Origin: Ehretia macrophylla
Lineage: Eukaryota; Streptophyta; Magnoliopsida; Boraginales; Ehretiaceae
Reading direction: 5' to 3'
Assembly (NCBI GenBank): GCA_037974665.1
Contig: CM075770.1
Span: 1,004,501-1,068,500 of the forward strand
DNA length: 64,000 nucleotides
Under the pieces are notes generated by a model. It saw only the letters and a program-made list of their open reading frames with translations. It did not search any database and was not told the origin of the DNA. The position numbers were made by a program, and so were the translations under genes. This document shows, piece by piece, positions 8,160 through 60,539 of the stretch (its first letter is position 1; each line of letters begins with the position of its first letter).

Positions 8160-8169
8160 TAACACTATA

Positions 8170-29366: not shown

Positions 29367-29866
29367 GAGGAAATTGGACAAATAGTCCCCATTGTTTATA
29401 AATTTTGGACAAATAGTCCCTATTGTTTCACAAGTCATTCAGTTAGTCCCCATTGTTTGCAAAAAATCAGTCAATTAGTCTCTATTGTTTGCAAAAGTCA
29501 CTCAACCAGTCCCTATTGTTTGCAAAAGTCATTCAATTAGTCCCCATTGTTTGCAAAAGTCACTCAATCAGTCCCCATTGTTTGCAAAAGTTACTCAATT
29601 AGTCCCCAATGTTTGCAACAAACATTGGGGACTAATTGAGTGACTTTTGCAAACAATGGGGACTGATTGAGTGACTTTTGCAAACAATGGGGACTAATTG
29701 AATGACTTTTGCAAACAATAGGGACTAATTGTGGGACTTTTGCAAACAATATGGACTAACTGAATGACTTGTGAAACAATAGGGACTATTGGTAAAACTT
29801 TTACAAACAATAGGGACTATTTGTCCAAAATTTGTAAACAATAGGGACTATTTGTAAGATTTGCCC
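29367..29866. mobile_element. Foldback element, Mutator-like, arms made of 31-bp tandem units
   Basis: The whole 500 bp is one inverted repeat: arms 29367-29615 and 29619-29866 with a 3-base loop (CAA). Each arm is an array of units of the form YAGTCCCCATTGTTTGC followed by AAAAGTCACTCAAT. In the left arm the units begin at 29383, 29414, 29444, 29476, 29507, 29538, 29569 and 29600, so the spacing is 30-32 bp. The flanks GTTTTATCA (29358-29366) and GTTTTATAA (29867-29875) match at 8 of 9 bases, the size of a Mutator-type target duplication. There is no protein frame. RNA read through it would form a long hairpin. Confidence 0.82.
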
Positions 29867-29969
29867 GTTTTATAATAATTCAATCATTCCCAATCTCTTT
29901 CCGAATCGGAGAAATAATAAATGGAGGGTTAAAACGTGTTAAAATCATGTATATTTTTTATTTTTTTTA

Positions 29970-30386
29970 GGATAATTTATCGAAATAGTCTTATATTTTT
30001 ATTTTTTTGACATTTAAGTTCTGTATCTTTTATTTTAGACAAAATAATCATTCATCTTTTATTTTGTGACAATTGTTAGTCATTGGAGCAAAATTCATCA
30101 AAAAATAACATTAATGAACACATAAATGACACGTGATCGCAAAATACATAAACTTTAAGATGCTTATATTTTATTGCATGACAATTTTACTCCTAGAGAT
30201 TTATGGATTTTGCAGCTATGTGTCATCTACGTGCTCATTAATATTATTTTTTTAACGAATTTTGTTCCAAGAACTAACAATTATCACAAAAAATAAAAGA
30301 TGAAAGACTATTTTATTCAAAATGAAAGATACGGGACTTAAATGTTAAAAATAATAAAGATGTATGACCATTTCAATAAGTTACCC
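29970..30386. mobile_element. Mutator-like MITE with ~190-bp terminal inverted repeats
   Basis: The left end GGATAATTTATCGAAATAG and the inverse of the right end GGGTAACTTATTGAAATGG are homologous, and the similarity runs about 190 bp inward, past a shared GTTCCAAGAACTAACA-like segment. The flanks TTTTTTTTA (29961-29969) and TTTCTTTTA (30387-30395) match at 8 of 9 bases, though the T-rich context weakens this. Within the arm, a unit ending in TTTTATTTT.GAC recurs about every 30 bp. Confidence 0.72.
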
Positions 30387-30395
30387 TTTCTTTTA

Positions 30396-31488
30396 TATAC
30401 CCATTGCCCCTGTGTTCATGATCAATTTCCTACACGAAATTTCCTCTATTTTAATGTTTTGTATCAACTTAATTAGTCATACTTTTGATTCTCTAATTAT
30501 AATAGTATCACATTACATTACGAAAATGATCAATAATATATATAGTAAAATAATGATATAATTAGATCATCTTATTATTAAATTTACCGAACAACACAAT
30601 CTTTTAAGATTCAGGAGAATAGAGCTAGCTAGCTTGAGATTTAAAAGTCAACTCTTTGATATCATCATATATCAAATGGTCTTTTTCTAACCAAAAAAAA
30701 AAAATTAGTTTCCGTACGTAGAACGAGGACCACTTGTCTAAAATTTAATTACAAGATTTGTGAATCTGGTTTTGATGAGAACGAGCTCAACAACCACCAA
30801 CCAGAAAGAAACGAGTAAATGAGACTATGGACCTAAGGTTACAATTTTCTTTTTTGGTTAAAATTAACCACGAGGTGTCCCCTCGCATTCTTTAGAGTTC
30901 ATTTTCTTTTTTTGTAATAACACAAGATTCACTTCAAAGTAAAATTATATTAAATTTATTTTAATATTATAAATTTATTAGCATAATTTTGTAATTAGAA
31001 AGACATAAATTTAAATTTAAAAGTTTTTAAATGCAGTAAGTTATTGCCCGAACACTCTTAGTTAGTGTCTTTAAACTTGTTTTTTTTTCTTAATTTGCTT
31101 GGTCTGTAAATTATTTAGAGTGCAGTAATATGTCCCATGCACAACTTCCACGTTTTACAATCTGCATAGAAAAAGCGCAGTTTTTTTAATCTGCGACCCA
31201 CAGAAAGTGTCAACTTGCGAACACGGTAAGTTTTTAATTAGGTCACGTGTAGGATAAAATTAACAGATGCTATTTTCAGACAATAAAATTTTTCATACAT
31301 CAATCACTCTATACAGCCGGACGGACCGGTGATGTATAAAATAATTTTCCTATGCACACAGCAATGCTGCTACTGCCAATAAATAACCCTCACTCCTCCA
31401 CCTCACAACCTTCATCAACATCTCTCTCTCTCTCTCTCTCGATTTTCTCCTCTCTCTCTCTCTCCCTCTCTCTCCCCCACTAGTAAAA
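30396..31488 (+). promoter_or_regulatory. Upstream region and 5' UTR of the FLZ gene
   Basis: The distal part is AT-rich without a gene. Close to the gene are a TATA-like TGTATAAAATAA (31333-31344) and a long CT-repeat leader (about 31421-31476), as often found in plant 5' UTRs. ATG follows at 31489. Confidence 0.5.
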
Positions 31489-32387
31489 ATGCTTTCGATG
31501 GTTTGGAACCCTTTGAAATCTAATGTTGATGAGGGTCATGAAAGCAAGGAAACAACTGGTTTTGGAGGCTCGTATAAGGGCTCTATGGATGAAGGCTTAA
31601 GGACACTTATAAGTGTTTCACATGGTGATTCAAAGATTATTGTCAAGTCGGGTTTAAAACTAGTCAAGCCAATATTTCTTTTGAATCAAAGCCGTCATGA
31701 TCATGGCTCTCTTGATTCTTGCTTTCTTAAATCATGTTTTCTATGCAACAAAACTTTGAGCCTTGATAAAGAGGTCTACATGTATAGGTAAGAACTGCTC
31801 TCTTTTTTAATTTTTAGTTCTCAGAGTTATTTTTCTGCTAGATTCTATGAGTATATAAACATGTAGACACTTTCGGACCAGCTAGTTTTTACCTAAATGG
31901 TCGATCGAGTATAATGAAAAGTGTTGAGTTCGAATCACGATTTTTACTTTCATTTTATCCAAAAAAAAAAACTTAGCCAATTACAAACAGTAAAATATGA
32001 TATATGTTTTCTTGTATATCATACAAGACGGCATACCTAGCCGATAAGAAAATAATGTGACCAATTTACAATCGCAAGTTTGCAATAACATCCTTTGTCC
32101 TGAGAGCAACTAGTCTTTAAGGGCCAATCTTATTTTTATGTGTAGAAGGGTGGAAATTAATTAACATTTATTCAATGTCTTCTATGTGCAGGGGTGATCA
32201 AGGTTTTTGCAGCATAAAATGCAGGGACAGGCAAATTTATTTGAATGAAATGAGAGAATTAGAGAATTATACCAAGAAAATCTTGGCATCCTTCCGGCCT
32301 TGCCGGGAGACCACTTCTCTGTTAGAGGAATTCGAGCAGCGACACGAGCCATTTTCACGTCAAAAGCGTCAAGTTATATTCTCATAG
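31489..32387 (+). CDS. FLZ-type (FCS-like, DUF581) zinc finger protein, 2 exons, 164 aa
   Basis: FLZ proteins are plant-specific adaptors that bind the SnRK1 kinase and link energy and stress signalling. Exon 1 is 31489-31787 and exon 2 is 32192-32387. The splice completes the codon for R100, so the finger reads YMYRGDQGFCSIKC across the junction; an intron inside the finger is common in this family. Zinc ligands are C83, C86, C106 and C110, in FLKSCFLCNKTL and FCSIKC, followed by RDRQIYLNEM, the usual tail of the domain. The N-terminus is Ser/Gly-rich and without domains. The C-terminus is basic (RQKRQVIFS). The length is normal for FLZ proteins. I cannot assign a numbered family member. Confidence 0.92.
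31880..31972 (+). mobile_element. Probable SINE remnant in the FLZ intron
   Basis: CCTAAATGGTCGATCGAG (box A-like) is followed by GAGTTCGAATC (box B) and an A run at 31962-31972. No clear target duplication was found. Similar boxes occur in the SINEs at 32556, 33449 and 39313. Confidence 0.4.
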
Positions 32388-33838
32388 TCAACAACGACTC
32401 GTGTGAGTTCAAAGGGTTTTCTAAAAAGAATTGCCGGTCTAAAAAAACAATCGTGTATCTTCAATTTTTTTGGTTTGATATGCCGATAGCACAAGATAAT
32501 TAATAGTGGTAGATAGTGCATCGTTGAAGGCAAACGAATAATGCGATATTTACTCAAAAATTAGGTGAAATAATCAAACTTATTGTAATTAGAGATACGA
32601 GTTCAAATCACATTTTCAGCGTTTATTTAAAAAAAAAACACAATATTTTCTCGTAGGTGTAAGGTTGTAAGATAAAAAGTTAATATATGATTTTGGCCTT
32701 TTACATGACTCACCTTCTCATATAATCCTTTGCGTATATATAATCGATGCTCTCTTATCCATTTCGAGTTTACGATGAAAAGTACTTGAGGGCTTTTTAT
32801 GAAAATCTGTTTCACTCGAATCTTAGCGTGGGGCTTTAGGCATGGAAAAAAGTTGGCCTTAATTACTAAAGATATTTTTCCAATATCGAGCTAACTTTAG
32901 TAACATTCAGTAGTGGCATAAAGCAATTCTGTTGTACTGAAAGCAATTTAATTTGTTGGATTTTGTGGGCATTTCTACTAGTCAAGTACTTTTCATTCAT
33001 CACTTTCGCATCTTTTTTTTTCATACTGAAAATGATGTAAGCTAATCCGCACGAGCATGCATGTTGAGTTTATTCATGTGTGACGGGAGGCTAACTAGTG
33101 CGCGAATTAATTGGTTACTCTTCAATTCTCATTTGATTTCAGTAGTGCACGTTTTGGACCAATTTTTTCAAGGGATCACATCTCCTCTTGAAGAAGGACA
33201 ACAATTGTTCTTCCAGTACTAAGGCTAATTTACATCAACAATATATTCATAGTTTTCATAAACAGGGAGATAAAGGCTAAAGGCCCGATAAATATTCGCA
33301 AGTTACCTGATTATCAATGCAAAAGTATTTCAATGACAAAAAGGAAAAATGGTTGAATGGCTCATTTCAATACAATTATCTTTGACCACTGGTTGATCTT
33401 CCCCATATATGTAAACAATGAGTGAATGGCTCAGTTCAATACAAACTTTTGTTTTTTATTTTTATTTTCGTACAGTAAACTTCGAAGTTGTGTTCGAATT
33501 CAGAACCTTTATTACAACATGTCATTATTTGACCATTTCATCTAACTTTTGGGTTAATACAAATTTCTCTGACCATTAATTGGTTGCTCTTCTCCAGATA
33601 TGTAACAAATGAGTGAATTTCTCAGTTCAAGGAATGTAACTTATCCATTAAAATCTAAGAAAGGGCTCTTCGAATTCATCAAGAATGGGAACATAATATC
33701 TTTTCAAGTTGTAAAATCTAATTAATTGTTGATTACTTTTATGATAAAACTATGAACAAATCTCTTCAACTCCCATGCTACTATGATACTACATATATAT
33801 ATAGTAGAGCAAAACATGCCTAATGGATATAGGTGAAA
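32388..33838. other. Spacer between FLZ and RBR genes with SINE remnants
   Basis: It holds a SINE-like remnant near 32556-32635 (box B-like CGAGTTCAAATC, then an A run), the SINE at 33449-33555, and a local duplication around it. A TATA-like TATATATATA at 33793-33803 lies 35-45 bp before the RBR start. Confidence 0.4.
33449..33555 (-). mobile_element. SINE, minus strand, inside a local duplication
   Basis: On the minus strand GATGAAATGGTCAAATAATG (box A region) is followed by GGTTCTGAATTCGAAC (box B) and an A-rich 3' end (AAAATAAAAATAAAAAAC). The flanks AATACAAACTT (33438-33448) and AATACAAATTT (33556-33566) match at 10 of 11 bases. The SINE is short and the duplication could also come from the older repeat it sits in. 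Confidence 0.55.
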
Positions 33839-35007
33839 ATGGATGGAATATCAAGTTCAAACATTCTTTATGTTGATGATTTTTACTTCTCAGCTCTTAT
33901 TGATGAGGAAGAAATCTTCCCAGTATCAGATGAAATCTATGCAGAAGAGTTGCAGATGCATGAGACTCTCATGTCTTGCATAATCTCGACGACACAACAA
34001 CGACAACAAACTGTATTATCAGACAGCATAAGCAGTACGCGAACAAGAAGACACAAGGTATTAAAGAGAGAGGCTGGAGAGTCATCTTGTAGCTTCTGCA
34101 TAATCTGTATGGATGCAAAGCCTGCTGGAGAGATGTTCAGAAACAATGCCTGTGCTCATTCGTTTTGCACAGACTGCATCAGCAAGCATGTTGCAGCGAA
34201 GATACAGGAAAATATCACCATGGTAAGATGTCCAGACGTTAATTGTAAGAGGGTTATTGAGCCTGAGGCGTGTCGCGCCATCGTGCCAAAGGAAGTGTTT
34301 GTTAGATGGGAGAATGCTCTGTGCGAGTCTTTGATCCTAGGGGCTCAAAAATTCTATTGCCCTTTCAAAGATTGTTCGACTATGTTGGTGGATGATGGAG
34401 AGGAGACTGTGACTGTTTCAGAGTGTCCTAATTGCAGAAGACTGTTTTGTGCACAATGTAAAGTTCCATGGCACGCTGGCTTCAAATGCAGAGAGTTTCA
34501 GGGATTAAAGAAAGATGAAACAGAGAAGGAAGATCTCATGTTGATGGAGCTAGCTAAGAACAAGAAATGGATGAGGTGCCCCAAGTGCATGTTCTTTGTT
34601 GAAAAGATTGCTGGTTGTCTGCACATTGCTTGCAGGTAAGGTTGTCCTTGTTTCAATTTTTGCAATCTCAAAGAATGAATATTCACCACCGGGCCATTGG
34701 TGCAGTGGTATGCTTTTCGCTATGAATGTGAGATATTTGTTGATCAATTCTCGTATGTGACACCCTTTGATATGTGTTGTATGATTTAGTTTTAATTTGA
34801 ATTAAAAAGAAAAAAAAAGATTAAATATTTGTACTTACGAGTTAAGTGAAATGGTCAAGATTGTAATTAAATGTTCAACATTTGAACCATTGTTTGTGAA
34901 TTTTTTTTTTCTATTTTTTGCTACTTTTTTATTTATTTATTTGTAGATCTTGAAATATTTGACTTCTCTTGTTCTCCATCTTTTGCAGGTGTGGTTATCA
35001 TTTTTGA
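33839..35007 (+). CDS. RBR-type E3 ubiquitin ligase, cut by an in-frame TGA in RING2 (possible pseudogene)
   Basis: RBR ligases pass ubiquitin from an E2 to a cysteine in RING2 and then to the substrate. The first ATG is 33839 (MDGISSSNIL). Exon 1 is 33839-34635; exon 2 starts at 34989 and reaches TGA at 35005-35007, giving 271 aa. RING1 uses C87, C90, C105, H107, C110, C113, C131 and C136. The IBR has C174, C179, C196, C199, C204, C207, H212 and C217. RING2 has C247, C250, the likely catalytic C260 (IAGCLHIAC), C265 and C267. The reading CGYHF is followed by TGA where the family has Cys (F-C-x-x-C), and translation past it gives YGCGSS, so the gap is one codon. The last zinc pair is lost. 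The paralog at 37263 is also defective. Intron 1 contains SINE-like sequence (about 34690-34925). Confidence 0.82.
34690..34820 (+). mobile_element. Possible SINE in the RBR intron
   Basis: CCATTGGTGCAGTGGTATG resembles a tRNA box A, a weak box B-like block lies near 34740, and an A-rich end lies at 34803-34819. A second tRNA-like block (TGAAATGGTCAAGATTG) lies at 34848. Target duplications are unclear. Confidence 0.35.
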
Positions 35008-36120
35008 TATGGGTGTGGATCAAGCAATATTGGTAGCCATGTCTGTCGAAGTCAAGTTTGAATTTTGCATGTTCATTTAGAATCACTTATATTAGCAGAT
35101 TATGAATTGCATCTTAATTGGTTTGATTAGTTGTTTGAAACAGGCAAAAGAATTAACTACAAGTGTTTCATTCTCTCTGTTTCTCTTTTTTCCTTCTTCG
35201 ATAATTGGAACATTAAAAAGTTGTACTTGAAACGATTGTTAAATACTTCTCTCCTTCAATTAAGACAACCCTTTTGGAATAGTGTTGTAAATGCGTACTT
35301 TTATATCTTTGCTTAATTCATCTTGAAACAATCCTTCTGACATTATGAGTTAAAAGTCTCGAGGAAAGCCTGATGCTATCAATAGAGGGAGCGAAAAACG
35401 TGCTTTCTCTCCTTAAATTGGTTGAAGTTTTCTACTTCTCACAGTAGTTTTACTTACAGAAAGGATCATGAAAGACGTGATCAAAATGGTACTCAAATGC
35501 ATTTACGATCCTAAATTTCCAGATACATCACACTTTTACTTCAGTTGAGGTTGCCACTCGATCCTAAGGCATATCAAAGAAGATTAGGAAACCACTCGTT
35601 GATTTTTGAAATTTGCCATCAGAAAATATTTTCACATCATCGACGTGTGCATTCACATATTTCGAAAATGCCTATGGCTCTGTTTGGTGTATTAGTGAAA
35701 TTTGAACTTTCAGATTGTAAAGTTTTGAGTAATACAACTTTGGGAAAAAGTACTGTTGAGAAGCTATTTAGTCTATATTGGCAATGTTAGGTTTTTAAAA
35801 ATTTCGAGGATAATGTTGAATTTTTAAAAATATGAATGGTTATATTTGAAATAGAAAAATAAAAACAACTTCCCGTATTATGTCAAATATCTTTGCAAAA
35901 GTCTTTTTTTAAAAGCTTGGATTTTGAGATTCTTATTTTTTAATTTTTTTCAATTTCAACTTTTTATTAAAAATTATTTCAGAAAATGGGCCAAATAAAT
36001 AAATTTTAATTTTCAAAATCTTACTTTTAAATTAAGATCTAAAAGTTAGGCCCAACGGACCTTATAACTATAAAGTTAAGAGTGTATTCATCTACCTAAC
36101 ACGAATAACTATATAATTAA
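35008..36120. other. Spacer after the first RBR gene
   Basis: 35008-35060 is the former coding continuation of RING2 (YGCGSS and so on). 35545-35790 is open but unrecognised. 35673-36061 may be an old MITE: GGCTCTGTTTGG at the left and the inverse GGTCCGTTGGGC at the right, without a clear target duplication. Confidence 0.35.
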
Positions 36121-37096
36121 GAGTAAAATGTATCATACCCTTTGTATTTTCACAAAGTTGAATCATAAACTTCATGTTTTAAAAAGTCGAGTTATAAACC
36201 CTGTTATGGAAAACGTTGCATATAACCCTCGCCGTCTATTTTTCTGTCAATTTTAACGTGAGTTTACACACACGCTTGAAATGCAAGTATAACATTTATC
36301 AAGTTTTAAAACACATGCAGAATGACAAAATACCCTTTTTAACATCAGTTGCTAATTGCCCCTTGTGTTTTCGATAAGGTTGTAAATGGCCCCTTGTGTT
36401 TTTGATAAGGTTATAAATTGCCCCTTGTGTTTTTTATAAGGTTTCTAATTGCCCCTATGTTTTTTTATAAATATGTAAATTGTCCCTTCAAAAATAAAAA
36501 AATAAAATAAAAATTGATAATCCTAGAGAGAAAAACTATTTCAAAGTGATTTTCCTTTGATTTGAAGTTGATTTTGCACTGATTTAAAGATTTTAATCTA
36601 CTTGTAGAAGAACGTGATTCCAAGTAAATGTACGATTATTGCTAGTTGCAATATGACTTTGAATTTCAAGCATAAGATTTATATTTTTTATGGTGGACAT
36701 CAATGTTCTGTTATATAAGCTATACGTTTTTTTATTTTTTTAATTAAATGATATTTATTAGTTTAAGGTTGTAGATCTCCTTATAAAGTAGACTAACACA
36801 TGGTTCTGATATTGTAAAATAAAAAATATTGTAAATATCTCCCTTTAATATTAAAAAAGTGATAAATACCCTCTTTTGATATCAAGAAAATTACAAATAC
36901 CTTCTTTGACGGATTTATCTTTAAACGATGACAATTTTATCTTTTTACAAGGCTAACTAACAGAGTTAAATAGAATTTGAGTTTGGGGAGTGTATGCAAC
37001 GTTTTTCTTAACACAGGGTTTATAACGCGACTTTTTAAAACACATGATTTATAATACAACTTTGTGAAAATATAGAGGGTATGATGCATTTTACTC
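36121..37096. mobile_element. Mutator-like non-autonomous element, 976 bp, perfect 9-bp duplication
   Basis: The left end GAGTAAAATGTATCATACCC and the inverse of the right end GAGTAAAATGCATCATACCC differ at one base, and the inverted repeat extends over 110 bp to CGTTGCATA. The flanks are a perfect TATAATTAA (36112-36120 and 37097-37105). Terminal units (TCATA.AC.T..TGTTTT type) start at 36133, 36163 and 36192. Inside, a second array of ATTGCCCCTTGTGTTTT units repeats at exactly 31 bp (36356, 36387, 36418, 36449, 36480). There is no transposase frame. Confidence 0.85.
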
Positions 37097-37184
37097 TATA
37101 ATTAATATATTAAATTTTGTCCCCGCCACAAACCACGGACAAAAAAAACAAGGAAAACAAAACTTCTTAGTCAAGTAACCAAAT

Positions 37185-37193
37185 CTATAAATA
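37185..37193 (+). promoter_or_regulatory. TATA box of the second RBR gene
   Basis: CTATAAATAT lies about 75 bp before the ATG at 37263. The Mutator-like element ends only about 90 bp upstream of this box, so its insertion displaced or replaced the distal promoter. Confidence 0.55.
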
Positions 37194-37262
37194 TTTCAAC
37201 GACTTCTTTTAACGATACATTACAATTGTGTTGCAAAACAAAAACCCTTTTAAGGCCTCTCC

Positions 37263-38027
37263 ATGAAAAAGAGAAAAACCCTCATGGCATTTCCGCAGAA
37301 ACACAAAGCACAAGAAGTTGATGATTATGATGATGATCAAGAAGATGAAGACATGTCCTTAAAGTTACAAGAGCTTCTCTACGAATGGTTGTCCTCTAAC
37401 AAAACGTCCGAATCAGAATATGACTTTCTTCAAGATGATTTCAAGAAAACCCCAGACATGAAGAAGAAAGCCATAGACAAATCTTACTCTATGGAGGGCA
37501 TCGATGGGTTGAGCTTTTCGTCAAGGCAGTTTGAGAAAGGTGAGTCTTCATCCACTTTCTGTGTTATCTGTGATGATGCAAAACCTGCAACTGCTATGGA
37601 GCGCAATAATAAATGTGGCCATTCTTTCTGTGAGGATTGCATTAAAGACTATGTTGGAGAAAAGATTCAAGAAGATGTGATGCAGATTAAGTGCCCAGAA
37701 ACAAACTGCAAAAGGGTTTTGGATAATAAATTGTGCCAATCTTTGATTCCAGAAGATTTGATTGATTATTTGCACATATCATGTTGTGAGGTCAGAGCTC
37801 TCTCATGGCCAAGAGTCCTTCAATGTCCACACCATTTTTGCTCAGGACTGTTCTTGGATGATAGACGAAAGTTCCCAATCATTGCATGCCCACACTGTTG
37901 GAGACTCATCTGTGTTGATTGTTGGGTGCCATATCATGAGGGCATGAATTGCAGAGAGTACCAGCAATGCCTTAGAGTATCACAACTCAGTAGTGCAAGA
38001 CCGGTGTATATCATCTTCTTTGAATAA
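37263..38027 (+). CDS. Truncated RBR-family protein (RING1 and IBR only), 254 aa
   Basis: This is a paralog of the gene at 33839; both share CxICxDAKPA, the KIQE segment, KCPETNCKRV-type and REYQ/REFQ blocks. The N-terminus is longer and acidic (DDYDDDQEDED, residues 21-31). RING1 uses C100, C103, C118, H120, C123, C126, C144 and C149. The IBR uses C188, C193, C209, C212, C217, C220, H225 and C230. After REYQ the sequence departs from the family and ends LSSARPVYIIFFE. There is no RING2 and hence no catalytic cysteine, so it cannot act as a normal RBR ligase. The region joining RING1 and IBR is also shortened (HISCCEVRALSWPRV). It may be a pseudogene with an intact frame, or a dominant-negative or E2-binding remnant; further exons downstream were not found. 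Confidence 0.8.
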   Translation: MKKRKTLMAFPQKHKAQEVDDYDDDQEDEDMSLKLQELLYEWLSSNKTSESEYDFLQDDFKKTPDMKKKAIDKSYSMEGIDGLSFSSRQFEKGESSSTFCVICDDAKPATAMERNNKCGHSFCEDCIKDYVGEKIQEDVMQIKCPETNCKRVLDNKLCQSLIPEDLIDYLHISCCEVRALSWPRVLQCPHHFCSGLFLDDRRKFPIIACPHCWRLICVDCWVPYHEGMNCREYQQCLRVSQLSSARPVYIIFFE

Positions 38028-39313
38028 GAAGAACATAATGATTTTGAAACATAGCTAGCAGCTTATAACAATGGTTTGAATATTGGTTTTTGCGCTTCGA
38101 TTTTAAATTTTGGAGTTAAATCCGATGATCGACTGCGTAAAATCCGTGATAGCAACGGAACCGTGAAAAGAGGTTATTACAGTTTACAGTGGTTTGAATA
38201 TTGGCTTTTGTGTTTTTGTGCTTTGATTTTAAATTCTCGAGTTAAATCTTTAGTTTCTTGTCTGAATTAGTACAATATCATACTGCTACATATTGAATTT
38301 TGGTTCTATTAAATAGGTTGTATTGTTTCATCTATTGATTGATACTTTTTCATGGCTTGATTTATTTTCATGGTGCTTAGATTGTTGTGGGGATTTTTTT
38401 TTTTTCTTGCTTTTGTTTGATCGATGATGATGGTGAAAAGGAAAAAGATCTTACCTTCATACACTAAAAATAGGTTAGATCTTTGACCGAGTCTTATGTA
38501 TAACAAGAATTTTGTATCCTAATTAAACTTATTTTAAAAAACTTATGATGTTTTGGATATTAATTTTTGTAGACTCTAATCTGCTTCAATCTTTATTTTC
38601 TTGTTTGAAGTACAAATATAATACTGCTACATTGAATTTTGGTTCGATTAGATATGCTATACAGTTTCATCTGTTCATTGATACTCTTTCATGGCTTGAT
38701 TTATTTTCTTGGTGCTTAGATTGATCCAGCGGGAATCTTTTTTCTTTTTTCTTTTTTCTTGCTCTTGTTTGATGAAGATGAAGGTAAAAAAGAAACAGAT
38801 ATATTACACGAAATAATCATAATAATATATAAAAAAAAAATCATAACAATAGAAGGCAAGACGGCGTTGGTCGACTAATAACATATTAAATTAAATTTCA
38901 TGTCAGAAATACCTTTTATAAAATTATTAGACTTCACATGGGACTACAATGTCGACTGTCCCATCAATTTCTTCGCTTGCAACTTACTTGTCTCTTTAGT
39001 TGCTGACTGAATTGTAGACCCCTTGAGAAATTATCTTCCATCCTCAATGATTTCATTCTAGAATTTTTTTGTTTGTAGACCCCTTGAGAAATTATCTTCC
39101 ATCCTCAATGATTTCATTCTAGAATTTTTTTGTTGCTATAACAAAATACAAAGTTACATCCTAAAACAATTATTATTAAGTGGAGCATCCGAAAATCTTT
39201 TTTGGGTATTTGAAGTTATAATCTATATGTTTGACTTGTAATCAAAAGACTGCATCTCTAAAACTCGACACACAACTTACTCTGTGTGTTGATTCAACCA
39301 CAAAAACATCCTG
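38028..39313. repeat. Downstream spacer with tandem duplications
   Basis: A segment of about 190 bp at 38250-38440 recurs at 38594-38780 (period about 346 bp), sharing TTTCATGGCTTGATTTATTT and GGTGCTTAGATTG. The phrase GTTTGAATATTGG..TTTTG also recurs at 38073 and 38192. Further on, a perfect 61-bp unit is tandemly doubled at 39014-39074 and 39075-39134. No gene is recognised. Confidence 0.65.
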
Positions 39314-39541
39314 TTTTCTTTCCTCTTTTTTTTTTTTTTTTTTTTTATCACGAGAAACTCTCATTAATTAGGATTATATTGGATTCACTCCAAGGTTCTA
39401 AACCTGTAGTAGAGCGGTGCACTCCAAAACATGCTTTAAGCAAGTCAAGAGTCGAACAATATTTATAACGAGAGTGTATAAATTCGAATATGAGACCTTA
39501 AATTACAAGAATTCACTACTTGACCACTTTACCCTATCTTT
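39313..39541 (-). mobile_element. SINE, minus strand, with perfect 11-bp target duplication
   Basis: On the minus strand the 5' end reads GGTAAAGTGGTCAAGTAGTG (box A region), then GGTCTCATATTCGAAT (box B), a body of about 150 bp, and a long A tail (the T run at 39327-39346 on +). AAAAACATCCT flanks it exactly at 39302-39312 and 39542-39552. The tail is long and the duplication intact, so the insertion looks recent compared with other SINEs here. Confidence 0.82.
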
Positions 39542-39552
39542 AAAAACATCCT

Positions 39553-41802: not shown

Positions 41803-41810
41803 CTATAAAA
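41803..41810 (+). promoter_or_regulatory. TATA box of the ERF-VII gene
   Basis: CTATAAAA lies 108 bp before the ATG at 41918, in a context (TGTACTATAAAACCAACC) typical of plant core promoters. Confidence 0.6.
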
Positions 41811-46374: not shown

Positions 46375-46563
46375 TGTCATAAGGAAAAAGCAAACGGTAA
46401 CCTTGACTGAGTTGACTTTTCTCTCTAGCATTTTTTGTTCTCCAGTGCCTTTGACGGCTGCTCCTCCACCCTTGGCTCTGCCAAGGTTGGCTTTCCTTCA
46501 TCAAGATCAGTTTTTTCTCTTTCTTCCTGCTATTTTCAGCTTTTAATTTCTTGTATCCCTCCT

Positions 46564-51400: not shown

Positions 51401-52593
51401 ATGGAGACTAGAATTGGTCCCTCTTTCAAAACCTTATTCCGCAACCCACTCTTATGCAAATTTCCAACTTGAAGTGCTACCCTTCGGGTCCTTGTGATGA
51501 TTTTATTAGTTGGAAACATGATACTAAGGGGTCTTTTTCAGTGAGCACTACGGTTGTTTACAATCAAAACATCCATCATGCTAATGCTATCAAATGGGAA
51601 GTTCTTTGGAAAATGCCTTGCCCTCAAAGAATTATAACTTTTGTGTGGCAAGCTACCCACCAACGCATAGCCTCTAAATATGATCTTAGCAAGAGAGGCA
51701 TGTCAATTGATACAAGTTGTGATTATTTTGATGCAATACGTGAGGAAACTGATCATATCCTACGGTTATGTCCTTATGCACGTCAAGTATGGGAACGCCT
51801 CCTTCTCAGACCACTTCGTACTGATTTCTTTGGCATGGATTGGAGTGCTTGGATTAATATAAATATTCAATCAAGGGAATCTTGTTTCGGAGCTAACTGG
51901 AAATGTGTTTTCGCTGCTGCTCTGTGGGAACTTTGGAGGTTGTGTAATGAAAAAAATTTTAAGGGTTCCATTAGGAAACCTCTTAATGTGACTGTTAACC
52001 AGATTATTAAAAATGCAAAAGAATTTGTGGATGTTTGGCGGTTTCATAGTAAACCTCAGTCCTATAATAGGAGGGAAATCCTTGTTGGTTGGGAAAAGCC
52101 AAGTGTGGGGTATGAGCTGAATATTGATGGTTGTTCGAAGGACAATCCGGGTGTTGCTGGAGCAGGTGGTCTCTTTCGTGATACTGATGGTAAATGGATG
52201 CTGGGGTTTGGAATCAACCTAGGCATTGCTAGTAATAATAGAGCTGAGCTTTTGGCGCTAGAAGAAGGTCTTCGCAATGTGGATAATCTTGGATTTCAAC
52301 ACCTTACCATTGAGACAAATTCGAGCTTTATTTGTAATCTGCTGAAAAAAGGGGGCGCTTATAACAGTCCGTTCAAGATTACGATAAAAAAATGTGTTGA
52401 GATTCTTGAAAAACATAAAGGTTATCCGGTTAATCACGTCTACCGGAAATCTAATGGATGTGTCGATTGGCTTGCTAATTATTGTCTTCTTCAACCTCTT
52501 GGGCCTTTCTCGCTGATCCAATCTCCGGATGCTCTTCAAATTCTGCTTGAGAAGGATAGGATGGGTTTCAAATCCCTCCGTGCTGTTCGGTAG
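48433..52593 (+). pseudogene. LINE ORF2 (endonuclease, reverse transcriptase, zinc finger, RNase H), four in-frame stops
   Basis: The ATG at 48433 overlaps the ORF1 stop as TAATG. The AP-type endonuclease shows LVWNCRGA, WLVTGDFNQV and SDHLPI. The reverse transcriptase shows FRPISLINVVAKLISK, LDLEKAYDKL and the catalytic FADDLLL (50538). GIRQKDPLSPYLF has Lys (50404) where related elements have Gly. A zf-RVT domain (FVWQATHQRI, about 51640) is followed by an RVT_3 RNase H domain (LNIDGCSKDNPG at 52120, NNRAELLALEEG, IETNSSF). The entire ORF2 stays in one frame, but is stopped at 49279 (TGA), 49531 (TAG), 51169 (TAA) and 51409 (TAG). The stops at 49279 and 51409 stand where Trp fits, the other two where Gln fits. 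Confidence 0.93.
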
Positions 52594-52635
52594 TTGTTTG
52601 TCCTACCTCCTTTTAACAAAAAAAAAAAAACATGA

Positions 52636-52832
52636 CTTTTAAAATTGGTTTCAATTCACCTCACCTATATCGAAAACTTTCAATTAAAAAATAAATAAAA
52701 AAAGAAGAAAAAGGCTCGATTGTGTAATGTTCAAGTTTTGACTTTTACCTTGTGTACGTTGAGGCCTTCTCGAAATGGGATAGTACAAAAATATGAGTTA
52801 GAAAATGAAATGTTATGAAGTGGAGTTTTGTA
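52636..52832. other. Short AT-rich spacer
   Basis: Nothing recognised apart from the target site of the element that follows. Confidence 0.3.
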
Positions 52833-53660
52833 TAGGAATAGCAACGGATCGGATACCCGCTAAAATTTATAAAATTAAACCCAAATTCATTTAAATTATA
52901 TTTTACCAAACTCATGACGAAAATCTATCAGGTTTAAATTTTTCTTACCAAACCCGAACTCGTTAAATATTCAAACATCCGCAGATACCCGACCCAACCC
53001 GTTAATGAATAGAAAAAAAAAATTAAAAAGAAAAACTTAAAAAGTTTTTAAAGAAATAAAAAAAGTACTAAAATAATGACAAATTAAATCGCAATAGATT
53101 AGAAAACGTAAATTAAGTTTGTTGTCTATTATCAAATTTAAACTTAATAAAAACATTCAACAAAATATTTATGCTGAGAAGTTATCATCCTTTCATAATA
53201 ATATGAAATAACCTGAAGAAAAAAGAACATAAAGTACTTGTCATAATTGTAAATTATCATTTTTATTTAAATTATTCAGTAATTGAGCAGTTGTATCAGT
53301 TGAATTAGATAAAAAGAATATGTAAACATAAATAATAAGAGTTATGTTATATCTCACAACTATTAATCTTAAACCAATATTAAAAAATTATATTTTCTTA
53401 AGTAATATATTATTTGTATATGTATGTAAATATATAAACATTTTTATTAATTTATTTTTACTAAATTACTAATCGGATTCTCGGGTTTCGGATTTCGAGT
53501 TTTTTTAAATTGATATTACCAAATCCTACCAAATTACCTGTCAATAATCACTTGTAAAAATCAAACTCTAATAAATACTGCATCAATTTTGTAAACAAAA
53601 TTATAATCAAGTTAAATACTTATCAATTTTAAATTTAAATTCTATCCGTTGTCATTCCTA
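52833..53660. mobile_element. hAT-like non-autonomous element, 828 bp
   Basis: The left end TAGGAATAGCAACGGATC and the inverse of the right end TAGGAATGACAACGGATA form inverted termini. Just inside are ATACCCG and ACCCGACCCAACCCG blocks on the left and GGATTCTCGGGTTTCGG on the right. The flanks GTTTTGTA (52825-52832) and ATTTTATA (53661-53668) match at 6 of 8 bases. There is no protein frame. The class is inferred from duplication size and terminal style. Confidence 0.55.
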
Positions 53661-53668
53661 ATTTTATA

Positions 53669-56469
53669 CCCTTTACAAAAATCAAATCACGTGAGTTCAA
53701 CCCAGACATTTAGGCCGAATTTTCCATGGTCCCGATTAGGCCTATAAAAATCTTCGGGTAGTGAATGTAATGATTGTTTGAGTTGTTGCTGGTCTTATCA
53801 TAGTTGTGAGGCCCAACTTTGGAGATTCTAAATCGAATCATATCGTCTGCAGTAGTAAAGACAATTTTGTTAAGGTTGCTACCATAGATTCTACTTTCTA
53901 GCTCTACTTATTCTCACATAATACCACCTACCCTTATATTAGTTTTAACTTTTCAACTCTGTTCTTAATCGTTTGTCAAACTAAGACATTCGATTTAAAA
54001 TTTAAAAAAAAATACTAAATTCTTTGTTGTCACTTGCACTGAAAACTTGAAAGATGTCTAGTCATTTTGCCTCCAAAAGGATTTTCAAGGAGTGAGAAGC
54101 CATGTGGCTTGCTCCTATTGGTTCATTATTTATTTATTTTTTGTTTTGAAATTATCATAATACCCCTTATGCGTTAAAAATTTCTAAAGGTATTGAATTT
54201 AAGGGACCTAGAAAGTGAGAAAAAAAAACTTCAAAGATCTAATTGTCCTAAGACAAAAAAGTGAGAGATTTGTCTTATTCCTTTTCACAAACTGCTTTGT
54301 GTGTTTTCTTGGACATAGCCTATTTTTGTTTATTCCTGTTTGGGCCTTGTTGTTATGTTGCTTTGGGCTCAGACCTAGTCTTGGAATTTCCTATTTTCTT
54401 GGGCTTAGTTGGTTAGGACCCATCCTCTTACAAATTTATGTAATCAATTAATTTTTTTTTTTTTTAAGAAAAGAAAATGAAAAGAAACCAAAACAAAATT
54501 GAATCCGTGAAATGCCCAACTCCTATAACGTTATTATGCCAGGCAAAATTTGGCATTACACCATGTTAGCACAGTTCAAATTCATGGTTATCCGGGTCAA
54601 AATTCTTCAAAAAATTATTACGCTCGATTATGGATGCAAGTGTGTATATGAATATCACACACATATAATTTATATATCTCATAACTAATTATCGTACAAC
54701 TCAATTAAGATTAATTCAAATTCTTTTTAATCCTAAAAACCTTAGGTGAATTGACAACAATTATTGCCACGATCCACGATAGTCACATCGCAGTAACCAA
54801 CAGCATCGATGTCCTCTCTCATTAATCATGTGAACTTACTACTTTAAGCACGCTTTACATGTCCACTACTGCATTAATCCCTATTCTCTTTTTCAACCTT
54901 TCAACTTATATCCTAGAGAGGATCTTGACTTTGCTATCTACATATTTTTATGCCGGTTTAACTACTCACTTTTTGTCCTTTTGTCATTGTTTTTATTTTC
55001 TTCTTTTTTACATGAAATATTATTAAGAAGTCCGTTTAAATTTATACCAAAAATTTAAATTTCAGGCCACATAATCTTATATATAAATAAAATGTATGAT
55101 TTGAGTTATTAGGCACAAAACTTATTAGGATGAATATGAACCCAACATTCAAGCAAGTTTCTTACATACGTTTCAAATACTTCACTACTAAACTAAATCT
55201 TTAAAATATTTGTTATTGTTTCTTTAAAAAAAAAAATATTAATGGAAGCCCAAAATAATGATTCAACTTCAGAATTTTTTAGTACAATAAATTATTATTT
55301 AATTATTTTATCGAATTCTTACGGAGTAGTAGATGTTTTTTCTTTCATATAAGAGGAAGAGTGTATATTCCCAAAAGAAACAAAAAGGAAGAATTTGTAG
55401 CATAAGGAATGATTTACCTTGGGTATTACATCACTTTTATGAGTTTATCTCTCTTTTCTTTTTCTCTTTCTCTTTTCTTTTCACCTTTAGTAAAAGCCAC
55501 CAAACTTTGTCTTCATGTTTCTTTTGTTTGTGATCAATGGCAATATTATTTTCCATTTAAAGAAAGATGGACAAAAGTAGAACAAACTCGAAGCTTTCAT
55601 ACATTTTGTATCATCGACAGGCACTCACAAAGAATCCTTGGTGGACGTAGCTTGACTTATTAACACCATAAAGGTCCTTTTTCGTCTTTTCCCCGACATT
55701 GGCATTTCTTTTTGTTTATACTTATGCTTCATGATCATTTCAGTATTATCTCCCCCCTCCTCTCTCTCTTTCTCATTTTGAGTAAAGATCTTATGATAAT
55801 ATAATAATATTTTGAGTAGGATCTAATAAACATAAATTGTTTATATTAGGTATTTCATCATAATTGAATTAATAATTCATAATTGTCGAATTTTGCATGA
55901 GCCAACCCATTTGTCCTTACAAATTATCCACAATATTTAATAATAATTGCATTAATAGTTCTTAATTACCAAATCTTTTAACAATTCATAACTGTCAAAT
56001 CTTGCATGAGAAGATCCATTCGGCCCTATAAATTATTCACATTAGTTTATCATAATTATATTAACAGTATATAAGCATCATAATTATTCACATTATTTTG
56101 ATATAAGAAATTGATATAAATGTATGTATACTTGTGAACTTGTTATAAAATATCTATATTGAGAATAGTCTTTGTATTAAAAGATTAAGCTTGCATCAAG
56201 CGCCTAAAGTTAAATTGAAAAGATATCTTTGTACATTTAAAGGTATAAATACGAGATAAAATACTAAAAACTTAAAAACGTTTACTATATATCTTATCGC
56301 ACATTATTTCTTATATTAAATCATATTTTCGATGGTCAATATTTAAGCTCAAACTTACTAGTTTTCTTTAGCAATGGTACGTGTCATTCGATGAAGAAAA
56401 ACAAAATTTAAAACTTATTGACCAAATTGACATCTTCTTTTTTTTTTCGGGTCAGAAATTGACATTTTC
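53669..56469. other. AT-rich intergenic region
   Basis: No gene is supported; open frames at 54215-54451 and 55333-55663 lack family motifs and follow poly-T tracts. A ~110-bp imperfect tandem duplication occurs at about 55868-55940 and 55980-56050 (ATTCATAA.TGTC.AAT.TTGCATGAG in both). Confidence 0.4.
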
Positions 56470-56472
56470 TTA

Positions 56473-56786
56473 AGCTATCCTTACTAAGAGTGTTAAAATA
56501 TAAAATATACTAAATTTAAAAAATTTTAGAGACCAAAATATTATTTTTGATTTAAATATACATGGGTCTCATTACTTTTTATAACTTTTGAAGTAAAATG
56601 AGTCTCTAAATTATATTTAGGGTGCTAAATTTAGAGATCCAAATATAATTTAGAGACATATTTTGGCTCAAAAGTTGTGAAAAACGATAGATCCCATGTA
56701 TATTTAAATCAAAAATAATGTTTAAATTTCTAAAAAAATTTAAATTTAATATGTTTTATATTTTAACACTCCTGATAAAAATAGCC
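56473..56786. mobile_element. Tourist-like (PIF/Harbinger) MITE, 314 bp, nearly full foldback
   Basis: The left AGCTATCCTTACTAAGAGTG and the inverse of the right GGCTATTTTTATCAGGAGTG continue into about 150-bp inverted arms sharing GTTAAAATATAAAA and TTTTTGATTTAAATATACAT. The flanks are TTA on both sides (56470-56472 and 56787-56789). There is no coding capacity. Confidence 0.75.
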
Positions 56787-56789
56787 TTA

Positions 56790-58628
56790 AAAGAACAAAA
56801 ACTTACCCACGAAGTAGATGAATTGGTCTAACCGAGGTGTGAATTTATTTTTAATTTTTTCAAAATGTTTTGGTCAGAATGGTGTGAATTGTTTTTTTAA
56901 TTATTATTATTATTTTTGGTGTGAATTGTTGATATAATGCATAGCTTAAGTAAAACAATAACGTCATCGTATGTGTGTGGGTCACACTCAATCATCACAG
57001 CACACATTTACCTTCACATCTTTTCTCTTCAACTCAATAATTGCGCCCAACCTACTGTTTCTCAAACACGTGGCGAAGCTGTCGGCTCAACCTAATAAGA
57101 CAACCTTGTTGCGATTTTCACGTGGTGGGGATGAAACGTCACATTTGCCACGTCACTCGTCTCGGCTATATCCACAGTTAATTTTTTTTTTTTTTTCTTA
57201 ATTTTCGTTTTCTGGAGGCAAAATAATAAGTTTTAATTGGGCCACTCCACCCGGTGGCTTTTGTAATTTCTTAATAAACGCAATCACCAACCACGAAAAC
57301 TCGTTAGGTTTTTCGATTTCGTGTAATAATTTTTTTTCTTCAGAAAACTCTTCAATCAATTTAAATTAATATTAATTTTTAATATATTTATGAATTTCAC
57401 ACATGTAAGTCTTATCAATTATGTGAAAAATTAAGTTATCAATCTGAATTGATGCAATAATTAGTTTTTCTTTTTTAAAATTTGCGGACTGAAAATTTAA
57501 ACACAAAAATTGTTAAACGCCATCTTCATTTTACATCTTTATCTCCTTGTCATTATCTTGTTAGTCTAGCATTGGTATAGGTATTCTCTTGTATATCAAT
57601 TAGAATTTATCGATATAAGTGTTCAAGTGCTTGTAAACTACCTCATGTACACGACTATAAGAATGAATGGAGAACTCTTGATTCGTGTGGGCGAATCTTT
57701 CCTTTCAAAAACAATAACTATTTTTGGTGTAAATTATCAAATGTAGCAACAATAACAGAGGAGATAGTTTTCAACTACAATGTATCTACATAATCAATTC
57801 AAAACACCCTTTTCCACCACGGCATGTAATTAGAGAAATGATAACATGTTATTAGATGTTAAATCCTTTATAACTAGATCATTTAATTCAATCTTCGAGT
57901 ATATTCGTAGAAAAATAAAAATATTCGTGAATTGGATCGATTTTGTTGTTAGATATAATTTATTTTTTTTAAATTGAGCTTTCAACATCCCTAAAAACCT
58001 TTCAAATTTTCTGATATTTGACTTTCTTATAACAAGAATTGAATTATGTGACATTTTTTTTTTTTATAACAAAGAGGCAAAAACGCCGTGAAATTATGTA
58101 ACCATTTTTATAAATGCATTTCATTTCTGACCAAAAAAAAAAAAAGAATTACTTTGATTTAAGTTGATTTTTTATTTGACATATATCGATTAGAAAAAGA
58201 CAACAATAGTTTTTGTAAGAGAGCTAACTAATGTCTATTCAACTGGTAAAAAAAAAGAAAAAACTATTGTCTATTCCCTTCTCTGCAAGTAATATGCCCA
58301 CGTTGTGCATTGTAAGGTTTGACAATCATTGATGACTAAGGTACTCGAGATTTAAAATGCAATAAAAAATGCGGGCATCTGATACCACTTCCAAGTTGCC
58401 AATATTCAAGTTCACACCATGAATACCGAAATTCAAGTTGATACCTCTTCCAATGTCAATGAATGTCACTTTCCCACTACTCAAGTAGCAAAAGAACGCT
58501 ATCGACATATAGTAGAATAACATATTTTGAGTATACATTTAAATTATTCGAATCACAAATATTAATTAGTTCTTTATTTATTAGAAAATACATCAAGGTG
58601 CATCACTATATTATGTAATATGTAGTTT
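56790..58628. other. Intergenic region with a cluster of ACGT motifs
   Basis: Four ACGT-core motifs lie within 90 bp: CACGTGGC (57067), CACGTGGT (57119), AACGTCAC (57135) and GCCACGTCAC (57147). This looks like a G-box/ABRE-type promoter, but no gene is recognised downstream. The rest is AT-rich with poly-T tracts. Confidence 0.35.
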
Positions 58629-58722
58629 TTTTTTTCTTCATCTCCTTCCCACACTCTTATAGAATTTGAACCTTTATCTTCTATTTGTCAAATACCACTA
58701 GACTACCCCTAAATTCCTATGA
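58629..58722 (-). mobile_element. SINE, minus strand
   Basis: On the minus strand GGTAGTCTAGTGGTATTTG (box A region) is followed by AGGTTCAAATTC (box B) and an A run. The flanks AATATGTAGTTT (58617-58628) and AATGTGTAGCTT (58723-58734) match at 10 of 12 bases. It is short, with little beyond the tRNA-like part. Confidence 0.6.
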
Positions 58723-58734
58723 AATGTGTAGCTT

Positions 58735-59563
58735 TAGAATAAATCAATTTCTCTTTTTAGATTGAACATATGCATAATCTAATTATTTTGTTACTGATAC
58801 AAAAGTAGTGTAAGTAACTATAATTATTTTACAATTAATATAAAATGAATTTCTCGTTATTTGAAAAACAAATAGTTAAATAATATTACTGTGATCATCT
58901 CATATTAGGCAAATTTATAAGAACACATTTCATTACTACCTCCAATTACTCATGGTAGAATTCAACATATTAACTTATTTCCTTTCGATTCCATTTAACA
59001 ATTTATAAAAAATTGAGAAGGCAATGAAATAGATGTCCCTTTAATGTTGTCCTTCACTATTGTGGCTGCCAAAACACATACTAATGGAAGAAGTAAAGGT
59101 ATGGAAGTATATTCGCATTGTTGGCCAAAACATTAGAATATATTATATGCTTCTAATATAAAAAGTAAGAGTGGAAAATAGCATTCAAATGCCCCACGCA
59201 GATGTAGATATGTATGAGAAAACCATAATTATTTCCAAAATAAAAATAAGTTCACTTAATCTTAATCATATTATTCTCCATTCCGGAAATGCTTTTGAGT
59301 TGACTCAATACTCATTCCTACCAATAATTCATTGGTCCTTGTCATTTTCCCTTGCTATATTTATTTTCTTGAACTTGCAAAAGTTACTTTTTTGCATTTA
59401 ATTGACCAAAAAAAGAAAAAATAATAATATTTCTATTTGGGTCAAAGTTATAATCCAAACGAAACAAATAAAGAAAAGGGGCATTTCAGTCTTTTTAGGG
59501 ATATGATTACCGCGACAAAGGAAAATTCTTTAATTTGTGTAGTAAAACTGAATGAAATTTGAG
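58735..59563. other. AT-rich spacer
   Basis: No gene, site or element end can be supported. Confidence 0.3.
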
Positions 59564-59572
59564 TAACAATAA

Positions 59573-60530
59573 GGGTAAATATCATTCCGCCCCCCTGTAA
59601 AATTCATATATATCAATCTGTTCCTCTGTGTTTTCAAAACTATCAGAACCCCCCCTGTAATTTTTAAAAAACAACACACCGCTCCCCTCTGTCTCTTTGC
59701 AACTAACACTGTTAAAAAATTATTTTAAATGACATTTTTACCCTTATGTTATACATCTTTTTTTTTTCTTTTTTTTCTCTCCTCCTATTTTTTTCACCCA
59801 AAAAAAATTGAAAAACAATTCACCATCTTCCTCAGTAGTAGCAAGATCTGACATAACCAATGAAGCAGCATCATGAATGAGTTCGAACCCATCTTCATTA
59901 ATGCTTAAAAACATGCCTACTTCAGGGACCAAACGTTCCCATCTTTCTCACCTACCACCCCTTCCCCCACCCCCACCCCCACTACCACCACGTCAGCCCA
60001 CCTACCACCCCTTCTCCCACCCCCTCAGCCCCTGTACAGCACGCACGCACACACACACAGAGCACGCACACACACACATGAAAACTAAAACATCTTCCTC
60101 TATGGCTACTGTGACTATGTTTGTAATATTATGCAGCTGACAAATGCATATGGTAGTTACTGACTGATATCCGTTCATCCATATTAATTTTGCTATCTGA
60201 ATGTTGAATAAACAGGAGAAGCTTGGAACAATGCTGGACAAAATGATGTGTGTTGAGCGTTTGGTCCCTGAAGTGGATGGGTTTTATGTTTTTAAATTTT
60301 TTTTCAATTTTTTTTGGATAAGGATAGGTATAAGGCCATTTTGGTCAATTATCTAGTTCATATAAGGCCAAAAACCATTCCTAGCTGCAGATAAAGCGTG
60401 TGAGTTACACTTTGAACGAAAAAAAAAGACGGCATGCAAACGGAAGGGGGCGGTGTGTCGGGTTTCAAAAATTACAGGGGGATGGACTGATATATATGGA
60501 TTTCACAGGAGAGCGGAATGATATTTACCT
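59573..60530. mobile_element. Mutator-like non-autonomous element, 958 bp, perfect 9-bp duplication
   Basis: The left end GGGTAAATATCATTCCGC and the inverse of the right end AGGTAAATATCATTCCGC extend to about 110-bp inverted repeats with ACACACCGC and CCCCTGTAATTTTT in both. The flanks are a perfect TAACAATAA (59564-59572 and 60531-60539). The terminal units have CTGT cores at 59595, 59626, 59655 and 59689 (spacing 31, 29, 34). Inside are CA-rich microsatellites (60041-60080) and a short inverted pair of CGTTTGGTCCCTGAAGT. The minus-strand frame around 59850-59940 reads RLVPEVGMFLSINEDGFE, faintly like the FAR1-domain start found in MULE-related proteins. Confidence 0.82.
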
Positions 60531-60539
60531 TAACAATAA

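What the first reader, a model, noticed from the sequence alone, without database searches (positions are those of the whole stretch)
29367..60530. Four Mutator-type elements share a cryptic ~30-31 bp unit lattice
Four elements with 9-bp target duplications (29367-29866, 29970-30386, 36121-37096, 59573-60530) have unrelated outermost bases but the same internal design. Short units with a C-rich or GTC core followed by a T run recur at 30-32, 29-32, 29-31 and 29-34 bp. One array (36356-36480) is exactly 31 bp five times. About 30 bp is three helical turns, so the cores would face the same side of the DNA. This suggests phased binding sites for a common transposase, or one ancestral satellite that seeded several families. 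I do not recall this being described as a shared feature.
Basis: partly seen in the sequence, partly recalled or inferred. Interest (0 to 1): 0.7.

Follow-up and report, generated by a model that had tools for sequence, protein, structure and literature searches.

The report
Shared 31-bp modules in transposon ends
Several different families of Mutator-like jumping DNA in this plant-like genome build their ends from the same kind of short module repeated about every 31 bases, counted from the very tip, which suggests a common docking layout for the enzyme that moves them; the docking itself was not tested.

Summary
All four elements sit at the stated coordinates with inverted ends and 9-bp target duplications (two perfect, two 8 of 9). 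Autocorrelation at 28-33 bp is enriched in them (37 of 120 sub-windows against 57 of 2337 outside), but not in B (0 of 19). One point is wrong: the outermost bases are related (roughly GGGTAAAT), and the modules are in register with the tip. Ignoring the outer 8 bp, the four families match at shift 0 and about 31 (z 9.5, 0 of 150 shuffles as high). Four more families (E, F, G, J) share it. Genome-wide, pairs of TGGTCCCT lie 29-32 bp apart in 94 of the first 100 of 334 matches, with 16-46 allowed. Best reading: reiterated end-recognition modules of an old MULE lineage, about three helical turns apart. Binding is inferred; no autonomous element with these ends was found. Subterminal repeats in MULE ends are known; ten paper searches showed no tip-anchored 30-31 bp layout shared across plant families.

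The parts
29367..29866 (.). Element A: foldback Mutator-like element, two arms built almost wholly of 31-bp modules; target duplications 29358-29366 and 29867-29875 (8 of 9 match)
   Evidence: 40 best of 2854 first-look candidates scored, 92-100% over nearly full length; perfect 9-bp duplication in 22 of the 30 fetched copies
29410..29618 (+). A left array, period 31, 6.7 copies, core AGTCCCCATTGTTT
29619..29854 (-). A right array, period 31, 7.6 copies, inverted relative to the left
29970..30386 (.). Element B: foldback Mutator-like element with weak modules; duplications 29961-29969 and 30387-30395 (8 of 9 match)
   Evidence: 40 scored of 963 candidates, 85-100% over nearly full length; autocorrelation p 0.037 left, 0.117 right; 0 of 19 sub-windows above z 3
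36121..37096 (.). Element C: Mutator-like element, GAGTAAAATG ends; duplications 36112-36120 and 37097-37105 (perfect)
   Evidence: tip 19-mer GAGTAAAATGCACCATACC found 380 times in the genome (188+192), reversed control 0
36354..36488 (+). C inner array of 31-bp modules (TRF unit AATTGCCCCTTGTGTTTTTGATAAGGTTATA)
36820..36950 (.). C right inner stretch with 31-bp periodicity
   Evidence: lag 31, match 0.52
59573..60530 (.). Element D: Mutator-like element, GGGTAAATATCATTCCGC ends; duplications 59564-59572 and 60531-60539 (perfect)
   Evidence: ends shared widely, 5 places near full length (window copy included) among the 40 scored candidates

Best explanation
The elements are non-autonomous Mutator-like (MULE) elements whose inverted ends consist of a tip (about GGGTAAAT) followed by reiterated 30-31 bp modules. 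Each module has a core close to RGTCCCT-N4-TTT and a variable AT-rich spacer; where all are recognisable, cores start about 17-18, 48-49 and 77-80 bases from the tip. I propose that the module is the DNA-recognition unit of the MULE transposases that move these families. Repeated copies of a short site would raise specificity and affinity and help assemble the two ends, and spacing near three helical turns would keep sites on one face of the helix. New families arose from an old MULE end by substitution and slippage of whole modules, while tip, core and spacing were kept. SHOWN: anatomy, register with the tip, spacing, sharing across families. INFERRED: binding, the role of phasing, selection on spacing, common descent.
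For: Cross-family matching with the outer 8 bp left out: four given families z 9.5, B-C-D without A z 3.8, eight families z 25.3, each 0 of 150 shuffles as high, period peaks at 31, 31 and 30-31 (first seen). Leave-one-family-out scan: 24 of 26 core-to-core distances are 29-32 bp, the others 24 and 92. Per-terminus autocorrelation p<0.05 in 15 of 16 termini of the eight families (one of the 16 from a second copy of C), against 0 of 6 termini of three other inverted repeats. Genome-wide: 334 matches to a pair of TGGTCCCT-type cores with a free gap, against 2 for the reversed pattern and 9 for a pattern with the core letters permuted; 94 of the first 100 listed at 29-32 bp, 6 of 8 spacer clusters at 30-31. 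9-bp duplications and long inverted ends fit MULEs, and MULE transposase domains are plentiful here (150 scored of 1321 candidates). Precedent by analogy: Galileo transposase binds sites in the repeats of its long ends (PMC3688188, abstract and passages); VANC proteins bind short motifs arrayed in tandem in VANDAL MULEs (PMC5735166, passages).
Against: No autonomous element with such ends was found: none of the listed A, B or D places lies within 12 kb of a scored MULE domain; two MULE loci with intact frames, L064 and L065, show no significant inverted ends in 7.6-7.8 kb (in L065 the best flanking pairs have E 0.6); a strict pattern scan found no three-core cluster within 1.5 kb of 15 MULE domains. 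Shuffles do not model kinship, so a shared register could be plain descent without present function. The core scan is incomplete: C shows the first core only (one copy has another at 109), D lacks the first, F has two, B left has one and B right has 25, 49 and 78. B is weak alone. The 100 matches are the first in contig order, not a random sample, and this core was chosen after J was seen. The permuted control is small, and 4 of its 9 distances also fall in 29-32. A second core pair (AACCCTGT) is mainly family C at 29 bp with a high reversed control, 274 against 169.
Confidence: 0.52

Rival explanations
1. Neutral minisatellite history: one ancestral MULE end carried a 31-bp repeat that expands by slippage. 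Register, core and spacing persist by descent and homogenisation, and the inner modules do nothing beyond making a hairpin.
For: Modules of A are very alike within the element (82-85% matches) and spacing is near-constant in copies, as homogenisation gives; A and G share their right tip but differ inside; slippage in tandem MULE ends is discussed in PMC3310237 (passages).
Against: Spacing holds at 30-31 bp across spacer clusters below 70% similarity and between families whose ungapped match is only about 0.36, where free indels should have blurred it; the register starts at the tip.
Confidence: 0.28
2. The modules are docking sites for a protein other than the transposase: an element-coded anti-silencing factor like VANC, or host transcription factors. 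The variant TGGTCCCT resembles sites recalled for plant TCP factors.
For: VANC21 binds, and VANC6 is reported to act through, tandem motifs in VANDAL MULEs (PMC5735166, passages). The TCP resemblance is recalled and comes from no call.
Against: Register with the tip and the presence in short elements that are mostly ends point to transposition rather than to a regulatory region; the AGTCCC and CCCCTGT variants do not fit one recalled host site.
Confidence: 0.13
3. Chance or base composition: AT-rich sequence with C-runs looks periodic when read by eye.
For: B alone: 0 of 19 sub-windows above z 3, right end p 0.117.
Against: Sliding control, register test and genome-wide core pairs.
Confidence: 0.02

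Closest known systems
Muta1 and other Aedes aegypti MULEs (PMC5225508, passages read)
   Same: MULE with 8-9 bp duplications and long inverted ends made of a tip plus subterminal tandem repeats; 10 of 12 long-end families there have such repeats
   Different: Their repeats are 9-15 bp (Muta1: 12 bp with 3-4 bp linkers); here the period is 30-31 bp and core and register are shared across families
Tm1 Mutator/Foldback family of root-knot nematodes (PMC3169594, passages read)
   Same: 9-bp duplications, terminal motifs, ends made of variable numbers of a tandem motif
   Different: 13-15 bp motif, one family, animal host
VANDAL MULEs with VANC-binding tandem motifs, Arabidopsis (PMC5735166 and PMC10398659, passages read)
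   Same: Plant MULEs with tandemly arrayed short protein-binding motifs
   Different: Motifs are mainly in non-coding regions such as introns and upstream stretches, differ between families, and the inverted ends are described as degenerated
MULEs with multiple tandem TIRs (PMC3310237, passages read)
   Same: Repetitive motifs inside plant MULE ends; tandem ends suggested to aid recognition by the transposase
   Different: Whole ends are duplicated, not a 31-bp module in register across families
MuTAnT of Medicago (PMC4486113, passages read)
   Same: Foldback Mutator-like element built from modules; element F here also lies in a TA repeat
   Different: A TA-microsatellite target is the rule there; four similar segments rather than a 31-bp series
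Galileo of Drosophila (PMC3688188, abstract and passages read)
   Same: Long repetitive ends with several shown transposase-binding sites
   Different: P-element superfamily, long repeats, three sites identified
SIRC, Arabidopsis (PMC10342631, passages read)
   Same: Short direct repeats separated by diverse spacers, attributed to MITEs
   Different: Repeat length varies (10-29 bp); no tip register or common spacing appears in the passages read
MuDR/MURA of maize (recalled; Benito and Walbot 1997 seen only as a reference, text not held)
   Different: I recall no reiterated series; not checked here

Membership tests
Mutator-like elements (MULE superfamily) | about 9-bp target site duplication | tested here: met
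   perfect in C and D, 8 of 9 in A and B; 22 of 30 copies of A perfect; E perfect; J 10 bp perfect. F lies in a TA repeat and cannot be decided; G and E' have none established
Mutator-like elements (MULE superfamily) | long terminal inverted repeats | tested here: met
Mutator-like elements (MULE superfamily) | moved by a MULE (DDE) transposase sharing the same ends | tested here: inconclusive
   MULE domains abundant but none linked to these ends
Foldback elements | long inverted arms, internally repetitive, little or no unique centre | tested here: met
   met for A; B has inverted arms covering nearly the whole element. C and D have unique centres
MULEs with subterminal tandem repeats (Muta1/Tm1 type) | tip followed by tandem repeats inside the inverted end | tested here: met
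   unit length differs (30-31 bp here, 9-15 bp in the papers)
VANDAL/VANC system | VANC gene and VANC-bound motif in the element | not tested
   no autonomous partner found to examine
Transposase-binding site arrays (as in Galileo) | transposase binds the repeat | not testable with these tools
   needs EMSA, footprinting or DAP-seq

The most novel reading that the evidence does not exclude
Plant MULEs of this lineage share a tip-anchored end code: one 30-31 bp recognition module, repeated a variable number of times in register with the tip and conserved across families that have otherwise diverged. Families could then be recognised by related transposases, new families could be made by changing module letters while keeping the layout, and the number of modules would set how strongly an end is recognised.
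Probability: 0.33. Interest if true: 0.72.

Novelty: new variant of a known kind. Interest (0 to 1): 0.52.

Why it matters
Mutator-type MITEs make up 41.5% of MITEs in a survey of 207 plant genomes (PMC12550479, abstract passage). How their transposases tell ends apart is, as far as I recall, poorly known. A layout shared across families gives a concrete, testable recognition unit and spacing, a way to classify and detect divergent MULEs when tips alone are too short, and a candidate reason why non-autonomous families multiply on few transposases.

Tried and rejected
Rejected: chance periodicity for the set as a whole. Rejected: 'unrelated outermost bases'. Not kept: a free-standing satellite as source, because the series is in register with the tip.

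Led nowhere: search for autonomous partners. The 15 fetched PF10551 loci with 1.5-kb flanks are one related MULE family without module clusters; two loci with intact frames of 707 and 703 aa showed no significant inverted ends; co-location of listed A, B and D places with MULE domains gave nothing. Window frames held no MULE domain: 10 of the 13 frames of 150 aa or more were scanned. A paper search by short sequence words returned nothing relevant. The AACCCTGT core pair added little. A further pattern (AGTCCCT followed by C or G) did not complete.

Results against or beside the reading: one search listed a perfect 9-bp match AAAAAATTT around window 56527-56732, a lattice-free stretch; I judged it chance because it is AT-only and the palindrome there runs on to 56467-56792, but it could be a MULE without modules. 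Searches also listed 8-of-9 matches at window 1550-1774, window 30359-39934 and L020 675-871, judged chance. L048, a lattice-free repeat, has p 0.067 and 0.093 in the autocorrelation test.

Rows dropped: H (L022, an A-like relative), I (L028, outer end cut off by the locus) and second A-like copies in L021 and L024 were not used as families. The A-G pair was left out of the cross-family tests because their tips are alike, and G's degraded left end was not used. F_R was left out of the register tests because it nearly repeats F_L, but was counted. One search dropped intervals of 50 bp or more. Of the 10 inverted repeats of at least 60 bits in 164 kb, 6 carry the lattice (A, B, C, D, J, E'); 4 do not (window 1636-1806, window 56467-56792, L046 6379-6664, L048 6650-6910), and three of those four were put through.

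Papers: 10 searches; most subscription papers are not held, so 'not found' is weak. From recall, not from a call: motifs of the type AGTCCCT/GGTCCCT near T-runs are frequent in repeats of many dicots.
Full report
SETTING. The window is G000:C7:1004501-1068500 of a 1.58-Gb, 20-contig genome without a name. It looks plant-like from its content (AP2, IBR, En/Spm-type and LINE-like frames; the inference is mine). GC is 34%.

OBSERVATION. C and D have perfect 9-bp duplications, A and B match in 8 of 9. Other copies settle A: among the 30 fetched copies, 22 have a perfect 9-bp duplication. Family sizes are lower bounds: A 40 scored of 2854 first-look candidates, B 40 of 963, C 40 of 552 with an inner query and 380 exact copies of a tip 19-mer against 0 reversed, D 40 of 517 with 5 places near full length.

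PERIODICITY. The top autocorrelation lag is 29-31 in all ten stretches examined; p for lags 29-34 is below 0.02 in nine, and 0.107 for B's right end. In a sliding test over the window with dinucleotide shuffles, lags 28-33 exceed z 3 in 37 of 120 sub-windows inside the elements and 57 of 2337 outside; the six other lag bands are about equal or lower inside. By element: A 19/22, B 0/19, C 15/40, D 3/39. Thus A and C are clear, D moderate and B not significant alone.

REGISTER WITH THE TIP. The tips are not unrelated. They run GAGGAAATT/GGGCAAATC, GGATAATTT/GGGTAACTT, GAGTAAAAT and GGGTAAATA/AGGTAAATA. I compared families without gaps at every shift from -70 to +70, leaving out the outer 8 bp. 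For the four given families the best shifts are 0, 1, 2, then 32, -29, -26, 33 and 63; the register statistic is z 9.5 and no shuffle of 150 reached it. Without A it is z 3.8, again 0 of 150, though single shifts are scattered. The best period, with shift 0 not used, is 31 in both sets. Shuffles do not model kinship, so this shows a shared layout, not its cause.

MORE FAMILIES. Searching fetched sequence for inverted repeats and target duplications, not for modules, gave E (L016 483-1406, 9-bp duplication TATTTGATA), F (L018 2036-3135, inside a TA repeat), G (L019, right end intact, shares A's right tip) and J (L041 4927-5591, duplication TTTCATATAC), plus a second E-like copy E' (L041). E, F and G came from flanks of A copies, J and E' from sequence next to the window. 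With all eight families the register statistic is z 25.3, period 30-31. A leave-one-family-out scan finds cores at about 18, 48-49, 77-80 and 108-111 from the tip in A, E and G and the first three in J; the others are partial: C first core only (one copy has another at 109), D from the second on, F two, B right 25, 49 and 78, B left one. Distances: 24 (1), 29 (3), 30 (8), 31 (12), 32 (1), 92 (1). Autocorrelation per terminus: 15 of 16 termini p<0.05, and E' right end p 0.013; 0 of 6 termini of three other inverted repeats, the lowest being 0.067. In 164 kb (104 kb around the window and six 10-kb stretches from other contigs), 6 of 10 inverted repeats of at least 60 bits carry the lattice. One lattice-free stretch, window 56527-56732, has a 9-bp AT-only match at its sides and could be a MULE without modules.

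GENOME-WIDE. A pattern of two TGGTCCCT-type cores, 16-46 bp apart, matches 334 times; the reversed pattern matches 2 times. Among the first 100 listed (contig order, C1 to C7) the distance is 29 (1), 30 (24), 31 (68), 32 (1), 43 (1), 45 (5); a flat spread would put about 13 in 29-32. The spacers fall into 8 single-linkage clusters at 70%; 6 are at 30-31 bp. A pattern with permuted core letters matches 9 times (its own reversed control 18), distances 27 to 41, 4 of 9 at 29-32. A different core pair, AACCCTGT, is mainly family C at 29 bp and has 169 reversed matches against 274, so it adds little; its distances were not tabulated. Copies keep the spacing: A, 396 intervals under 50 bp in 30 copies, 331 at 31, 58 at 30, 7 at 32; C array at multiples of 31 in 8 of 8 loci. 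For B and D only coordinates of other copies were obtained.

MODULE. The profile is anchored on its own core, so its sharpness is not independent evidence.

MECHANISM. I favour reiterated recognition modules for MULE transposases. Tandem sites in transposon ends are bound by transposase in Galileo (PMC3688188, passages), and tandem motifs in VANDALs are bound by VANC (PMC5735166, passages). Thirty-one bp is close to three turns of B-DNA (established knowledge), so equal faces are plausible. What is missing is the enzyme: MULE domains are abundant, but none could be tied to these ends. The main rival is a neutral, inherited minisatellite. The constancy of 30-31 bp across diverged spacers speaks against free drift but does not exclude it.

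KNOWN OR NEW. Subterminal repeats in MULE ends are described in mosquito (9-15 bp, PMC5225508) and nematode (13-15 bp, PMC3169594), and repetitive motifs in plant MULE ends in PMC3310237; passages of each were read. Ten searches of the held library gave no report of a tip-anchored 30-31 bp layout shared by several plant families; the library lacks most subscription papers. I therefore call it a new variant of a known kind.

Noticed in passing
window 8163 to about 24400: En/Spm (CACTA) type element: frames with Transpos_assoc, Transposase_21 and DUF4218 at 14227-16487, a CACTATAAAAAA start at 8163, and GTGACGG-rich subterminal repeats near 8230-8460 and 24114-24412 (periods 27 and 54 in the latter). 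The right end was not settled.
   Followed up: partly
window 46429-52593: LINE-like series of frames: DUF4283, RVT_1, zf-RVT, RVT_3.
   Followed up: no
window 39012-39134: A 61-bp unit repeated twice with 100% identity, probably a recent tandem duplication.
   Followed up: no
window 33833-34639 and 37254-38027: An IBR-domain frame and a second frame with weak IBR/RING matches below Pfam's cut-offs lie on either side of element C, possibly a local gene duplication.
   Followed up: no
window 56467-56792; L048 6650-6910; L046 6379-6664: Three palindromic repeats without the lattice, used as controls. One search lists a 9-bp AT-only match AAAAAATTT around 56527-56732, judged chance.
   Followed up: partly
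window 59573-60530 (family D): Mostly the two ends (query 1-262 and 704-957) are shared among copies; the interior differs and a piece (about 366-506) is often on the other strand.
   Followed up: no
L049-L063: 15 top MULE-domain loci are one family, about 80-99% identical over long stretches, with some long open frames: a possibly recent transposase family whose ends were not reached.
   Followed up: partly
L018 2036-3135: Element F sits inside a TA microsatellite, like the MuTAnT elements of Medicago (PMC4486113 passages).
   Followed up: no
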